Positions 2,572-7,687 of a stretch of 64,000 bases of DNA are shown piece after piece. The position numbers were made by a program, and so were the translations under genes. Each line of letters opens with the position of its first letter. Position 1 is the first letter of the stretch. This stretch comes from Brachyspira murdochii DSM 12563 (GTDB taxonomy: Bacteria; Spirochaetota; Brachyspiria; Brachyspirales; Brachyspiraceae). The notes under the pieces are model-generated. The model was given only the letters and a program-made list of their open reading frames with translations. It did not search any database and was not told where the DNA came from. The stretch is taken from contig NC_014150.1 in assembly GCF_000092845.1 (NCBI RefSeq), forward strand, positions 930,001-994,000. The letters are read 5' to 3'.

Positions 2572-3621
2572 TTATTTAATTATAAAGTATTTAAAAAATC
2601 CTTGCTCTACATCATCAGGTCTTTTAGACTGTATCCAAGCAATCATAGGCTGACCTTTTATATGTCTGTACGGAACAAGTCCCCACATTCTGCTGTCGCA
2701 GCTTTGATCTCTATTATCTCCCATTACAAAGAAATAATCCTCTGGAACATTATATATATATTCATCAGGTCTGTCTTTGGCATTAGGAACATATATATTC
2801 ATCCAATACCATAATTTTATATCATCGCTTACTATCTCATCATTTATATAAACTTCAAAAGAGCTGTAATCATTATAATAATCTGTTTTATCAACTATCT
2901 TTTTAAATATCATAACATCACCTTTTTTAGGAACATAAATAGGTCCATATATATCTATACGAGGAACAAACTCTCTATCATTTCCATAAAAGAAATAACC
3001 CCATTTATCTTCTATTTCATTTCCATTTATAATTATTTTTTTATTTCTAATTTCAACTGTTTCTCCAGCAGTAGCTATAACACGCTTAACAAATTCTTTT
3101 CTAGGATCCAAATCTACAGTTTTAAGTCCCAAAAATAAATTAGCAGGTGCTAAATGAGTGCCTCCAGTAAGTTTTTCTCCTATATAGTCTGCAAGTAAAA
3201 ATCTAGGGTCCCAAGTAAAAGGAGTAAGAGCAAACACCATAACTGGAAGTTTTAAAAATTGAACCAATGGAGAAGGCTCATAATAAGGCATAGCAGACTC
3301 GCATCCGAAAGAAGCAGAAGGAGGAGCTCTGAATACCACCAAATCCCCCCTTTGAGGAGATTTTATTTTAGGAAGTCTGTATCCTAAAAGCCCATCTGTA
3401 AAAGGCAATTTAACCCCATAAACAAATCTATTTGCAAAGAGTCTGTCTCCGGGCATTATAATAGGTATCATAGAGCCTGTTGGTATTTGATAATTCTGTA
3501 TTAAAAATGTATTTATAAGAAGCACAATAACTATTGCATATAATATTTCTTTTAATGTATGTTTAAAATTACGGCATTCGCCTATTATTGTTTCTGTAAT
3601 ATTTTTTATAGGATTCTCCAT
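2572..3621 (-). CDS. lepB: Signal peptidase I
   Basis: Membrane-bound serine protease that removes signal peptides from Sec-exported proteins. I chose the ATG at 3621, which has AAGGGG eight bases upstream, over a TTG at 3639 in the same frame; this gives 349 residues. One membrane helix lies at about residues 25-43, followed by the box with catalytic Ser50 (PTGSMIP). The general-base Lys is at about 179 (KRVIATAGE) and the conserved GDNRDQSCDSR box is near 310. It is longer than E. coli LepB because of an insert between the two catalytic boxes. It leads a probable lepB / XPB-like / queA operon. Confidence 0.95.
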   Translation of the reverse strand: MENPIKNITETIIGECRNFKHTLKEILYAIVIVLLINTFLIQNYQIPTGSMIPIIMPGDRLFANRFVYGVKLPFTDGLLGYRLPKIKSPQRGDLVVFRAPPSASFGCESAMPYYEPSPLVQFLKLPVMVFALTPFTWDPRFLLADYIGEKLTGGTHLAPANLFLGLKTVDLDPRKEFVKRVIATAGETVEIRNKKIIINGNEIEDKWGYFFYGNDREFVPRIDIYGPIYVPKKGDVMIFKKIVDKTDYYNDYSSFEVYINDEIVSDDIKLWYWMNIYVPNAKDRPDEYIYNVPEDYFFVMGDNRDQSCDSRMWGLVPYRHIKGQPMIAWIQSKRPDDVEQGFFKYFIIK

Positions 3622-3723
3622 TAACTTAACCCCTTGCAATAATAAATATTGATGTAAAAGTATATAATAAAACTGTTAAAATAGCAATTGTATAAAAAGA
3701 ATTTACTAGAAAATATAAAATTA

Positions 3724-4953
3724 TTAATCTAATACTGGAAGGCTAACACCGAGTTTATAAAACTTCACTAAATCGCTAATTTGTTCTTTTTTTTCAAAAT
3801 CTATGATTTTATTGTTTGAATCATCTGAAGGATATATTATAATACAATTTGGAATATAATTTTCAATATCATTTGTAAACTCTTTTACTATACTTTCAAC
3901 TCTTCCATATCCTGAAAGCTGCCTAATATCTTCTATGTTTATACCATTATTACAGCTGCTTTTATATTTAGTATCTGCTATATAATCATATCCATTGCAC
4001 TTAATAATAAAATCAGGTTTTAATTTATGACGGCTATATACTTCTTGATATAATATTTTTGCATTTTTATTTTTTAGTGAATCATCAAGTAAAGCATAAA
4101 CATATTTCTCAAATAATAATGACATATCAATATAGAAAGGAGGAGCATAATTTTCTTTATTTGAATCTTTATACCTTTTTAATTTGATTATATTAATAGC
4201 TAATTTTATAAGCAGCTTATATTTTTTGTATAGCGGATTTAATTTTATATTATGAAGTTCATAAAAATGAAGTTCATCAGATACTTCAGAAAAAAAGGTC
4301 ATACAAGAAAAAGAATTATAAATACTTCCTATATTGGAGTAGCATATTTTTAATGCCTTTTTTAGTATTCTATTTTCCAAGCAGTTTATATCATAATCAA
4401 AATAAGAACAGTATACTCTGTCATTTCTAGCAGTCATAATATTTTTCTTTATATGATTTGAAAAATCTATTTTACCTTTTATTTTTGAATTAAGATTTTC
4501 TTCTTTTCTTATAAAATTTCTTTTAAGTCCGTTATGAAGCTCTAATTCAAGCATTCTCAAAAAATGTATACTTGTTAAAGCATCAAGTCCTTTTATTAAT
4601 ATGCTTCCTTTATAATCTATAGCAGGCTCTTCAAAATTAATGCTGTATATTTTATCAAAGTCTTTTATCATACTTGAATAAGACAAGCATTTTGAAAACA
4701 TTTTCATAAAATCAATATTATCTATTTTAGGATTAATTATAATATTTTTTGTATATTCATTATCAAGCCAGAAAGCACCTATATAATAGGAAAGAGTTTT
4801 TCCAAATGAATTTTTCCCAAATATGTATTCTCTGTATTTTGAATTATTTATATGTTCAATAAGTGAATCACAATTTATCTCATTATGCTCATTAAATGAA
4901 GCAGAATTATTTTTACAAAATTCGCATTCGCATTGATTATTTAAATTATCCAT
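3724..4953 (-). CDS. mcrC: McrC-type nuclease subunit of a type IV restriction system
   Basis: 409 residues. McrC docks on the McrB GTPase ring and supplies DNA cleavage at modified cytosines. The C-terminal third holds a PD-(D/E)XK core: a KPDFII strand, about 13 residues, then YIADTKYK with the catalytic Asp and Lys. It is preceded by PPFYIDMSLLFEKYVYALL, typical of McrC family nuclease regions. The N-terminus carries a Cys-rich stretch (CECEFC) that is not usual for the family and could bind metal. It starts 5 bases after the mcrB stop with no clear Shine-Dalgarno, which suggests translational coupling. A stand-alone nuclease is less likely given the adjacent McrB. Confidence 0.85.
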   Translation of the reverse strand: MDNLNNQCECEFCKNNSASFNEHNEINCDSLIEHINNSKYREYIFGKNSFGKTLSYYIGAFWLDNEYTKNIIINPKIDNIDFMKMFSKCLSYSSMIKDFDKIYSINFEEPAIDYKGSILIKGLDALTSIHFLRMLELELHNGLKRNFIRKEENLNSKIKGKIDFSNHIKKNIMTARNDRVYCSYFDYDINCLENRILKKALKICYSNIGSIYNSFSCMTFFSEVSDELHFYELHNIKLNPLYKKYKLLIKLAINIIKLKRYKDSNKENYAPPFYIDMSLLFEKYVYALLDDSLKNKNAKILYQEVYSRHKLKPDFIIKCNGYDYIADTKYKSSCNNGINIEDIRQLSGYGRVESIVKEFTNDIENYIPNCIIIYPSDDSNNKIIDFEKKEQISDLVKFYKLGVSLPVLD

Positions 4954-4958
4954 AAGAA

Positions 4959-6155
4959 TTATATTGCCAAATCTTTAATAGATTTTTTTATATTGTCATC
5001 ACTTTTTAATATACCGTCTTTATAATACTCTAATAATAAAGGCTTTATTTCATAATCTAATTTTCTTTTTAGCTCTTCTTCATCTTTAGCCATAAAATAG
5101 CTATGCCCTATCATAATATCATCAATCTCGAATTCTTCATTTAATTTTTCTTTAATAATGTTTTCTATATTATTAAATAGTGTAGAAGCTTTTGATTTTA
5201 ATTCTTCATTATCATTATAATAATTTTCAATTTTTTCTTTATCTGCTTTAATAGTTATAAATGCAAATCTTCTTCTTAAAGCATAATCAATATAACCTAT
5301 GCTTCTGTCAGTTGTATTCATAGTACCTATTATATATAAATTGCTAGGCACAGAAAATATTTCTTTGGAATAAGGCAGTTTAACTTCTATTTCATTGTCA
5401 GCATTTTTTCTTTTATCAGCTTCCAATAATGTAATAAGCTCTCCGAATATTTTTGCTATATTACCGCGGTTAATTTCATCTATTATAAGTACAACAGGAT
5501 TTTTATTATTTTCAATAAGATCTGATAAGTTATAATTTTCCTTTAAATATTCTATAAGAGGATCTACATATGATCTATAAGATTTATATTTTTTATAATA
5601 TATTCCAAATAAAGCAGCTCTTATATATCTCCAATTATCTCCTACTTGGGAAGCAGGCTTACATAATACCTTCCCTTTATCATTAGTAGTTAAATAAAAA
5701 TCAAGTCCTGTTTTTGTTTTTAAAGTAATTTTACCAATATTATTATTTTTTTCATCAAATCTTATATTTTCTTCAATTAATTTATTTTGAAATTCATTCC
5801 ATACATCTTCTATATTATTTTTATCATTACCTGCTGTAATTGAATATCTGCAAGCCTCTTTGAAAATTCCGTCTGTGATTTCATAAGATATATTGTCGTC
5901 ATTAGAAATAGGTTTATATCCTTCAACAAACTCCTCATAATCCATAGACTGATGAAAAGTTGTAAAGAATATCTGATTCTTTTCCATAAGCTCTTTATAT
6001 CTTTTCATAACTTCTTTTCTGTCATTTGATATTTTTTCGTCAATCAAATTAACAGCAATTTCAGCAGTAGAATAAGTTTTTCCAGTACCAGGTGCTCCTT
6101 GAAGTATAATCTGCTTTTTTTGTTTTAGTATATTAATAATCTCTTCTTTTTCCAT
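4959..6155 (-). CDS. mcrB: McrB-type AAA+ GTPase of a type IV restriction system
   Basis: AAA+ motor that forms a ring with McrC and translocates DNA on GTP hydrolysis. From the ATG at 6155, which has GAGGA ten bases upstream, it has 398 residues. Walker A is GAPGTGKT at about residues 20-27, Walker B is VVLIIDEINRG, and the McrB signature MNTTDRS precedes sensor residues in ALRRRFAF. An alternative upstream ATG at 6206 in the same frame lies inside the 3' end of the EVE gene. The frame continues into the EVE coding sequence if one A of the A6 run at 6189-6194 is removed, so the ancestral protein was probably an EVE-McrB fusion. As drawn it lacks its own DNA-recognition domain. Confidence 0.9.
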   Translation of the reverse strand: MEKEEIINILKQKKQIILQGAPGTGKTYSTAEIAVNLIDEKISNDRKEVMKRYKELMEKNQIFFTTFHQSMDYEEFVEGYKPISNDDNISYEITDGIFKEACRYSITAGNDKNNIEDVWNEFQNKLIEENIRFDEKNNNIGKITLKTKTGLDFYLTTNDKGKVLCKPASQVGDNWRYIRAALFGIYYKKYKSYRSYVDPLIEYLKENYNLSDLIENNKNPVVLIIDEINRGNIAKIFGELITLLEADKRKNADNEIEVKLPYSKEIFSVPSNLYIIGTMNTTDRSIGYIDYALRRRFAFITIKADKEKIENYYNDNEELKSKASTLFNNIENIIKEKLNEEFEIDDIMIGHSYFMAKDEEELKRKLDYEIKPLLLEYYKDGILKSDDNIKKSIKDLAI

Positions 6156-6183
6156 TTTTTTTAGTTCCTCATAATAAGCTTTG

Positions 6184-6566
6184 TTACATTTTTTCACGTA
6201 CTTCATCTTTTTTTATTAAACCTGTACCTCTATTTTCATAGATGATAGGTTCTTCTAGTTCTATCCATCTATTAACTTCAATTATATCAACTTCATCTTC
6301 TAAAGAAACACCGTAATAATTAGCTTTTTCTTCATCTATTAAATCTTTCCAAGTGCAGTACTCTTCTGAAACTGAAGCCGCTTCTCCTATAGCTATTATT
6401 TTAAAACCTTCTTTTGCTGCTATTAAATCACCAACTTGTAAATCTCTAAAATATTCTATTCTTCTATTGTAGCTTCCTAATATAGCAGAATTATGCTTTT
6501 TAAACTCTTCAAAATATGAAGGCTTACCATCACCCCAGCTAACTCCGCATGCAAAAACTTTTCTTA
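6184..6566 (-). repeat. Direct repeat unit 1 (EVE coding sequence)
   Basis: About 383 bases that match 6623-7004 with one substitution (near 6474) and one extra T in the T-run at 6189-6194. Outside these limits similarity drops quickly. The partner unit lies 438 bases to the right in the same orientation. Confidence 0.95.
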
Positions 6567-6573
6567 ATTGCAT
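6184..6573 (-). CDS. EVE (PUA-like) domain protein, copy 1, out of frame with mcrB
   Basis: 129 residues. The family signature is visible as FACGVSWGDGKPSYF near the start, with a VGDLIAAKEG strand and a NRWIELEEPIIYENRGTGLI C-terminal strand. EVE domains read modified bases and often sit with or inside McrB proteins. The stop arises because the A6 run at 6189-6194 is one base longer than in copy 2; with five A residues the frame would read on into mcrB. It therefore overlaps the longest mcrB frame by about 23 bases. It differs from copy 2 by one substitution (Asn for Ser in the GSY-RR segment), the second residue and the tail. It could be a functional stand-alone reader, or the severed N-terminal domain of McrB. 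Confidence 0.8.
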   Translation of the reverse strand: MQLRKVFACGVSWGDGKPSYFEEFKKHNSAILGSYNRRIEYFRDLQVGDLIAAKEGFKIIAIGEAASVSEEYCTWKDLIDEEKANYYGVSLEDEVDIIEVNRWIELEEPIIYENRGTGLIKKDEVREKM

Positions 6574-6600
6574 TTAACTACTCTTTATTTAATAATAAAA

Positions 6601-7011
6601 TTAATTTCTACCAAAAACTTCATTACATTTTTCACGTACTTCATCTTTTTTTATTAAACCTGTACCTCTATTTTCATAGATGATAGGTTCTTCTAGTTCT
6701 ATCCATCTATTAACTTCAATTATATCAACTTCATCTTCTAAAGAAACACCGTAATAATTAGCTTTTTCTTCATCTATTAAATCTTTCCAAGTGCAGTACT
6801 CTTCTGAAACTGAAGCCGCTTCTCCTATAGCTATTATTTTAAAACCTTCTTTTGCTGCTATTAAATCACCAACTTGTAAATCTCTAAAATATTCTATTCT
6901 TCTACTGTAGCTTCCTAATATAGCAGAATTATGCTTTTTAAACTCTTCAAAATATGAAGGCTTACCATCACCCCAGCTAACTCCGCATGCAAAAACTTTT
7001 CTTAGCTCCAT
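6601..7011 (-). CDS. EVE (PUA-like) domain protein, copy 2, first gene of the McrBC operon
   Basis: 136 residues, nearly identical to the downstream EVE copy but with its own C-terminal tail (CNEVFGRN) and stop. The ATG at 7011 is preceded by TAGGAG at good spacing. A TTGACA-N16-TATAAT promoter lies 40-65 bases upstream on the minus strand, making this the promoter-proximal gene of EVE - EVE - mcrB - mcrC. By family knowledge it should bind a modified base, probably a modified cytosine; that substrate is inferred from the McrBC neighbours. No catalytic residues are expected. Confidence 0.85.
   Translation of the reverse strand: MELRKVFACGVSWGDGKPSYFEEFKKHNSAILGSYSRRIEYFRDLQVGDLIAAKEGFKIIAIGEAASVSEEYCTWKDLIDEEKANYYGVSLEDEVDIIEVNRWIELEEPIIYENRGTGLIKKDEVREKCNEVFGRN
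6623..7004 (-). repeat. Direct repeat unit 2 (EVE coding sequence)
   Basis: Partner of the unit at 6184-6566. The T-run here has five bases instead of six, which keeps this copy in frame through its tail. Confidence 0.95.
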
Positions 7012-7048: not shown

Positions 7049-7076
7049 ATTATAGCATAATATGCTTAAATGTCAA
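7049..7076 (-). promoter_or_regulatory. Promoter of the EVE-EVE-mcrB-mcrC operon
   Basis: On the minus strand TTGACA (7076-7071), a 16-base spacer and TATAAT (7054-7049). Both boxes are perfect consensus. The start codon at 7011 follows with a leader of about 30 bases that contains the Shine-Dalgarno. Confidence 0.85.
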
Positions 7077-7159: not shown

Positions 7160-7687
7160 TTGAAAAAAATAATACTGCTTTTTATACTTATTTTAATATT
7201 ATCATCTTGTGCAGCTAAGGTACATTTAGTAGAAGATTCTTTTTATGGAAGCAAATTCTATCAAACAGATTATGTCTCTATAACTTTTTGGTCAGCAACT
7301 ATTAAATTCAGATTAAGAAATATAAGCGGTACTGATAATATAATATTAGAAGTACAGTACATTACAGACGGCTCTTTTAATATTACAGAAAAAAGTAAAG
7401 TAGTGTTAAAATTTTCTGACAGTACATTTTTGGATCTATACTACACATCTTTAATGCCTAAAACAGATACTGAAGTGATATACGGAACTTCTATATATTT
7501 TATGGATACGGCATATGTAGATAGAAGTTACAGCATACAGGCAGAAAATAAAATAACAGATATGAAAACAATTACAGATATACGCGTAGAAACTTCTGAC
7601 GGATTTAAAAATTTCAAAGTAAAAGAAAGTGCTGCAAATGATATTATAAGATTATATAATGAGATGAAAGAGCTTTTATCAAAATAA
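7160..7687 (+). CDS. Putative lipoprotein of unknown function
   Basis: 175 residues from a TTG start at 7160, chosen because GGAG lies six bases upstream and because a longer frame from 7070 would begin inside the divergent McrBC promoter. The N-terminus is a lipoprotein signal: LKKIILLFILILILSSC, with Cys17 as the lipidation site. The mature part is rich in beta-strand-like sequence and ends in a short helix. It is probably anchored in the periplasm or outer membrane. I do not recognise the family. Confidence 0.75.
   Translation: MKKIILLFILILILSSCAAKVHLVEDSFYGSKFYQTDYVSITFWSATIKFRLRNISGTDNIILEVQYITDGSFNITEKSKVVLKFSDSTFLDLYYTSLMPKTDTEVIYGTSIYFMDTAYVDRSYSIQAENKITDMKTITDIRVETSDGFKNFKVKESAANDIIRLYNEMKELLSK

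What the first reader, a model, noticed from the sequence alone, without database searches (positions are those of the whole stretch)
6184..7011. Two near-identical EVE genes kept in step
About 383 bases are repeated 438 bases apart with only one substitution and one indel, yet the flanks fall away abruptly, and the tails are only loosely alike. That pattern suggests recent gene conversion or a recent duplication with replacement, giving a stand-alone reader plus a McrB-linked reader. It may also be a substrate for recombination that deletes or swaps the domain.
Basis: seen in the sequence. Interest (0 to 1): 0.6.

Follow-up and report, generated by a model that had tools for sequence, protein, structure and literature searches.

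The report
Copied reader gene beside restriction motor
In the gut spirochaete Brachyspira murdochii, two neighbouring genes for a protein that probably recognises chemically marked DNA have recently been copied over one another, and the copy that should be joined to a DNA-cutting defence machine is knocked out of frame, a small example of how such defences swap or lose their targeting parts.

Summary
Two EVE-like genes (6601-7011 and 6184-6573, minus strand) share a 382-bp tract with one substitution and one indel, while the coding flanks differ at 16 of 29 sites. The arrangement is older than the identity. A B. pilosicoli record has the same stand-alone gene, with matching tail and spacer (46/50), beside a diverged fused copy. 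In B. murdochii both copies match its stand-alone type (89%) rather than its fused type (80%). This points to gene conversion, probably from the stand-alone copy.

The junction is in one frame in all six other Brachyspira loci. I infer a restriction system that is off or impaired.

Across species the locus is modular: an EVE core, a 118-residue insert inside the McrB GTPase, and the McrC C-terminal third vary sharply between conserved stretches. No one tree fits all five McrB/McrC segments, but that conflict rests on one genome, B. hampsonii. This is a variant of known type IV restriction.

The parts
6601..7011 (-). EVE-A: stand-alone 136-aa EVE/YTH-like reader
   Evidence: Intact ORF. AlphaFold model pLDDT 84.4, pTM 0.80; closest solved folds VcaM4I EVE, MJECL36, PH1033 and YTH domains. 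dN/dS 0.32 against the G001 stand-alone copy.
6184..6573 (-). EVE-B: second copy, 129 aa, cut off from McrB by a frame break
   Evidence: 98% identical to EVE-A in protein.
6623..7004 (-). Homogenised tract, copy A (382 bp)
6184..6566 (-). Homogenised tract, copy B (one base longer through the indel)
6189..6194 (-). A6 run, A5 in EVE-A, that breaks the EVE-McrB frame
   Evidence: the junction is in one frame in the six other loci.
4959..6206 (-). McrB-like AAA+ motor (415 aa from the ATG inside EVE-B; core from ATG 6155)
   Evidence: Pfam AAA_5 1.5e-18; NCBIfam McrB 1.5e-36 but below its curated cut-off.
6153..6170 (-). Possible internal start: GAGGAA (6165-6170), then ATG (6153-6155); GAGGAA or AAGGAA at about the same distance from this ATG in all seven loci
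   Evidence: consensus match only.
5496..5849 (-). 118-residue variable insert between DGIFKEAC and Walker B of McrB (allele a here)
   Evidence: no such insert in G025 and G021.
3724..4953 (-). McrC nuclease subunit; C-terminal third (3724-4179) is variable between species
   Evidence: Pfam McrBC 1.8e-32, over cut-off; module identities.
7049..7076 (-). Consensus sigma-70-like promoter TTGACA-16-TATAAT with TG before the second hexamer, upstream of EVE-A
   Evidence: 12 of 12 matches; consensus only. No minus-strand site is listed in the 27-bp spacer between EVE-A and EVE-B.
2572..3639 (-). Signal peptidase (LepB-like, name recalled), right-hand flank of the insertion site
   Evidence: Present in 24 of 26 genus genomes at high identity.
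7160..7687 (+). Lipoprotein-like gene, left-hand flank of the insertion site (ORF called from 7070)
   Evidence: lies 144-186 nt from LepB in nine genomes that lack the system.

Best explanation
This is an EVE-McrBC (type IV, modification-dependent) restriction locus that carries a second, stand-alone EVE gene at its head. Shown: the two-gene layout predates the split from the G001 lineage, and the two EVE bodies in B. murdochii were made identical after that split. Inferred, and best supported: RecA-type gene conversion, most likely from the stand-alone copy A onto copy B, over about 382 bp. Shown: copy B has one extra A near the end of the tract, so the EVE and McrB frames no longer join, unlike in six other Brachyspira loci. 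Inferred: the McrB motor is now made alone from an internal start, like E. coli McrBs, with two free readers beside it. Modification-dependent restriction by this locus is then off or impaired in this strain unless the readers act in trans. Inferred from the genus comparison: reader, GTPase insert and nuclease end are exchangeable modules, and the near-identical EVE pair is a by-product of that recombination rather than a design to keep two readers in step.
For: Tract against flanks P = 4.7e-20, and at most 1 difference where about 45 are expected at the winA-G001A rate, P about 1e-19. EVE-A tail plus spacer is 46/50 identical between B. murdochii and G001; shuffled scores were mean 4.6, max 32, against 72 observed. 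Copy B matches G001 stand-alone (339/380) better than G001 fused (305/381). The lone substitution is derived in copy A: Ser only there, Asn in B and five other copies. Frame: EVE and McrB in one frame in G001, G019, G016, G014, and in the right-hand part in G003 and G012. EVE fold. Internal GAGGAA/AAGGAA-ATG at about matching positions in all seven loci. E. coli McrBs precedent (PMC12707154, passage).
Against: Direction of conversion leans on one genome (G001), whose fused copy may itself have been replaced. Only one B. murdochii genome is held, so neither the timing nor the fixation of the A6 is known. The genome is 454 plus Sanger; a homopolymer error inside a repeat is not excluded, though the paper states an error rate under 1 in 100,000 and 19.7x Sanger cover (PMC3035287, passages). 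EVE-A is under purifying selection (dN/dS 0.32) and has the operon promoter, so it is not simply debris. No biochemical evidence exists that these readers bind modified bases.
Confidence: 0.66

Rival explanations
1. A recent tandem duplication of one EVE gene rather than conversion of an old pair.
For: The two bodies are nearly identical, and several relatives have a single EVE (3 of 7 loci).
Against: The stand-alone tail and spacer are shared with G001 at 46/50, and an EVE-A remnant sits upstream of a different fused EVE in G012, so the pair is older than the identity. A fresh duplication would not give copy A its own tail and stop.
Confidence: 0.12
2. The locus works in split form: EVE readers act in trans on the McrB motor, so the frame break is tolerated or useful.
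For: McrB, McrC and both EVE ORFs stay open after the break. Relatives keep a GAGGAA/AAGGAA-ATG internal start. EVE-A is under purifying selection. Bell et al. report stand-alone EVE proteins beside other restriction systems (PMC7641849, passages).
Against: In E. coli the form without a reader blocks restriction rather than supports it (PMC12707154, passage).
Confidence: 0.2
3. The A6 is a sequencing error and the gene is really a fused EVE-McrB with a converted reader.
For: 454 was used, and reads inside a 382-bp repeat are hard to place. A6 is an ordinary run here: 352 A or T runs of 6 or more in the window. All relatives are in frame.
Against: Finished genome, 19.7x Sanger plus 48.9x 454, stated error under 1 in 100,000 (PMC3035287, passages).
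Confidence: 0.15
4. The EVE-A/EVE-B pair is a type IV counterpart of duplicated hsdS genes: the stand-alone gene is a donor from which the fused reader is rewritten, changing specificity.
For: G001 carries two distinct EVE genes side by side, 76% alike in DNA. In the window one type has overwritten the other. EVE cores are swapped between conserved ends in G014 against G016: core 206/285, ends 229/236, P = 6e-16.
Against: Direct, not inverted, repeats. EVE-A has its own promoter and is under purifying selection, so it is not silent. Frequency unknown, one genome per species. After conversion the two copies are alike and no longer offer a choice.
Confidence: 0.2

Closest known systems
EVE-McrB type IV restriction (Bell et al. 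2020, PMC7641849)
   Same: EVE-like reader joined to an McrB-like motor followed by McrC, as in six other Brachyspira loci.
   Different: A second stand-alone EVE precedes it here, nearly identical to the second copy, and the joint is broken by a frame shift. Brachyspira is not mentioned in that paper's main text.
E. coli K-12 McrBC with McrBs
   Same: McrB/McrC pair; a motor without reader from an internal start is expected here.
   Different: Reader is EVE-like, not DUF3578. The motor alone is the only McrB product predicted in this strain, whereas E. coli makes both.
Duplicated hsdS specificity genes of type I systems (PMC7394358)
   Same: Two copies of a specificity part at one locus, able to recombine.
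   Different: Direct repeats, no methyltransferase among the four genes, type IV, no switching shown.
Campylobacter jejuni mcrB alleles (PMC8713573)
   Same: Conserved motor end, divergent N-terminal part, frame-shifted allele in one strain; mcrB deletion makes the strain sensitive to 17 of 43 phages (passages).
   Different: No second reader gene is described in the passages I saw.

Membership tests
EVE/YTH-like (PUA superfamily) reader | EVE/YTH beta-barrel fold | tested here: met
   Model pLDDT 84.4; Foldseek best 6yex (VcaM4I EVE) E 6e-4, then YTH domains; VIA-align Z 9.7 (2p5d), 9.4 (6yex), 9.2 (2hd9), rmsd 3.2-3.9 over 117-118 residues. EVE and YTH are not told apart.
EVE/YTH-like (PUA superfamily) reader | Match to a curated EVE sequence profile | tested here: not met
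   No EVE hit in Pfam up to E 10, nor in NCBIfam or PADLOC up to E 1. A limit of profile sensitivity, not a structural criterion; hence 'EVE-like'.
EVE/YTH-like (PUA superfamily) reader | Pocket that takes a flipped modified base | not testable with these tools
   Invariant W75 and W103 in 8 aligned rows, but their mapping to the VcaM4I pocket (P24, W82, Y130; PMC7897488 abstract) was not established.
Type IV McrBC | McrB AAA+ motor with adjacent McrC | tested here: met
   AAA_5 1.5e-18, McrBC (PF10117) 1.8e-32 over cut-off; NCBIfam McrB and McrC matches are below their equivalog cut-offs.
Type IV McrBC | Specificity domain joined to McrB | tested here: not met
   Broken in the window. Met in G001, G019, G016 and, from a downstream ATG, G014; right-hand part only seen in G003 and G012.
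Type IV McrBC | Cleaves modified DNA | not testable with these tools
   No assay.
Duplicated, recombining specificity genes (hsdS-like) | Two distinct copies at one locus | tested here: not met
   Window copies are 98% alike in protein; met in G001, whose two copies are 76% alike in DNA.
Duplicated, recombining specificity genes (hsdS-like) | Inverted repeats | tested here: not met
   The copies are direct repeats.
Duplicated, recombining specificity genes (hsdS-like) | Switching between strains or cells | not testable with these tools
   One genome per species held.

The most novel reading that the evidence does not exclude
Brachyspira EVE-McrBC loci are reader-swapping type IV restriction systems: a stand-alone EVE gene at the head of the operon is both a working protein and a donor that rewrites the fused reader. 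The GTPase insert and the nuclease end are exchanged between species as further modules, with VSH-1-like gene transfer agents as the likely vehicle. The frame break in B. murdochii would be a side effect of such rewriting.
Probability: 0.22. Interest if true: 0.72.

Novelty: new variant of a known kind. Interest (0 to 1): 0.42.

Why it matters
Switching of specificity by recombination is documented for type I systems through duplicated hsdS genes. If a duplicated reader next to McrB does the same job, type IV defence against modified phage DNA would have a comparable way to change target. The locus also offers a natural test of whether McrB can use a reader in trans.

Tried and rejected
A simple recent tandem duplication was considered and put second, because the stand-alone tail and spacer are shared with G001. 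Phase variation by the A6 run was considered and rejected as a special feature: the window holds 352 A or T runs of 6 or more. I first read the locus as free reassortment of three modules in seven species. Exhaustive AU tests showed no common tree for seven taxa, but dropping B. hampsonii (G003) alone restores one tree that fits all five segments, while dropping any other single genome does not. With five taxa and the EVE segment added, one topology is accepted by all six segments. I therefore claim a demonstrated mosaic only for B. hampsonii, plus the EVE core swap in G014 against G016. G019 as an A/B deletion fusion was considered (its leader is 98% like that of G003 EVE-A), but its EVE resembles G016 throughout, so this is not shown. 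The fused EVE-McrB model was useless (pLDDT 44.9), so the fold of the insert is unknown. Searches for EVE relatives in viral contigs, plasmids and phages found none; a profile search of solved structures gave no usable hit. Positive selection on EVE rests on one pair only: winA-G019 dN/dS 0.91 against 0.22 for the McrB core, P = 0.0013; the G016 comparison gives P = 0.06 and G001 P = 0.02.

Full report
Where it is. The window lies in a one-contig genome of 3,241,804 bases, the length given for Brachyspira murdochii 56-150T, DSM 12563 (PMC3035287, passages seen). On the minus strand, in order, lie EVE-A (6601-7011), EVE-B (6184-6573), an McrB-like motor (4959-6206) and McrC (3724-4953). They sit between a lipoprotein-like gene and a signal peptidase gene (LepB, named from recall).

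The observation. The two EVE genes share a 382-bp tract with one substitution and one indel, ending abruptly on both sides. Coding flanks differ at 3 of 7 and 13 of 22 sites; Fisher P = 4.7e-20. The own genome has no third copy.

What the protein is. No Pfam, NCBIfam or PADLOC family of EVE type matches these ORFs at sequence level. A model from six aligned sequences has pLDDT 84.4 and pTM 0.80. Its closest solved fold is the EVE domain of the modification-dependent enzyme VcaM4I (Foldseek E 6e-4). MJECL36, VcaM4I and PH1033 lead the second look with Z 9.7, 9.4 and 9.2, and YTH domains follow at about 8. I therefore call it EVE/YTH-like. Which base it reads, if any, is untested.

Gene conversion, not plain duplication. 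EVE-like matches were found in 8 of 61 genomes of the first relatives search and 9 of 296 of the phylum. Seven of the 26 genus genomes carry one next to McrB. The stand-alone tail plus spacer is 46/50 identical between it and the window, far above shuffles, so the layout is shared by descent. Since then the stand-alone copies have drifted by 48 of 410 sites, yet in B. murdochii A and B differ by one substitution in 382; P about 1e-19 at that rate, and 3e-7 at the rate seen against the 5' half of the B. hampsonii copy. Copy B matches G001's stand-alone gene (339/380) better than its fused gene (305/381), which points to copying from A to B. The alternative, that G001's fused copy was the one replaced, changes the direction, not the fact of homogenisation. 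The single substitution is a new change in A (Ser36; Asn in B and in five other copies).

The indel is one extra A in copy B (A6 at 6189-6194), and it falls at the joint. In B the EVE frame runs into TAA, while the McrB frame carries the continuation that in EVE-A and in relatives follows the EVE domain. In G001, G019, G016 and G014 EVE and McrB are one open frame (in G014 from a downstream ATG), and in G003 and G012 the visible right-hand parts are too. So 6 of 6 other loci are joined and this one is not. A GAGGAA or AAGGAA lies at about the same distance before the core ATG (6155 here) in all seven loci. I infer that the motor is made alone from there, as McrBs is in E. coli, where the short form withdraws McrC and suppresses restriction (PMC12707154, passage). 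A sequencing error remains possible, with 454 and a repeat, but the genome was finished with 19.7x Sanger.

Copy number across the genus. Of seven loci: two intact EVE genes in G000 and G001 (in G000 the second is cut from McrB); one visible in two halves around a 581-N gap in B. hampsonii G003, where a second copy would leave about 484 bp missing and a single copy 46; an EVE-A remnant of 22 codons ahead of a different fused EVE in G012; single in G019, G016 and G014. The insertion site is occupied in 6 of 26 genus genomes, empty in 9 (lipoprotein to LepB distance 144-186 nt; sequence inspected in three) and not decidable in 11. G001 carries the system elsewhere.

Modules. Sliding comparison and segment identities show conserved stretches broken by three variable parts. 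In the EVE domain, G016 and G014 share 98% in the leader and in the tail, but the core is 206/285 (P = 6e-16). Inside the McrB GTPase, a 118-residue insert has two alleles, 54-60% alike, between flanks that can be 99.1% identical (window and B. hampsonii, whose LepB genes are 90.8% alike). This insert is absent from two related McrB proteins in G025 and G021 and present in another McrB in G014. The McrC C-terminal third is the third part. Of all 945 seven-taxon trees none is accepted by all five McrB/McrC segments; the three conserved segments share trees pairwise (4, 10 and 6), while insert and McrC end share none with them. Leaving out each genome in turn shows that B. hampsonii alone causes the conflict, so only its mosaic is demonstrated. 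Bell et al. had noted that McrB GTPases often carry inserts likely to be specificity domains (PMC11090510, passages).

How it probably works. Inferred: the fused EVE-McrB of relatives recognises DNA bearing a modified base through the EVE part and, with McrC, moves along and cuts it. The stand-alone gene is kept by selection (dN/dS 0.32) and has a perfect consensus promoter, so it likely has a role of its own, perhaps as modulator or trans reader. A vehicle for exchange is known: the gene transfer agent VSH-1 moves 7.5-kb random fragments in Brachyspira (PMC3163572, passage), longer than this 3.5-kb island.

Novelty. EVE-McrB is a common architecture (PMC7641849, passages), and C. jejuni mcrB shows conserved motors with divergent N-termini and a frame-shifted allele (PMC8713573, passages). 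Searches for Brachyspira murdochii with McrBC (no paper), Brachyspira with McrB (two papers, listing only) and McrB with conversion or swapping (listing only) named nothing on this locus. I rate it a new variant of a known kind.

Noticed in passing
L020:7956-9191 (G019): McrC of G019 has a frame break near codon 57, so this restriction locus too may be inactive.
   Followed up: partly
L023, about 2420-2500 (G014): The fused EVE of G014 has a frame break in its first 20 codons; this is a metagenome assembly, so it may be an error.
   Followed up: partly
L024:6213-7940 (G027): In a related genus an EVE about 42% identical is fused not to McrB but to TPR repeats and DUF2971.
   Followed up: partly
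L111:2615-4549 (G014), L112:3938-5569 (G025), L113:3283-4884 (G021): Related McrB proteins carry a different N-terminal domain without a clear Pfam family; the one in L111 carries insert allele a with an in-frame TAA.
   Followed up: partly
window genome G000:C1:1487424-1489309 and C1:1789882-1792431: Two further McrBC loci in the same genome.
   Followed up: no
window:15133-16389: A 418-aa ORF that looks like a phospholipase-D-type nuclease (by eye only) a few kb away.
   Followed up: no
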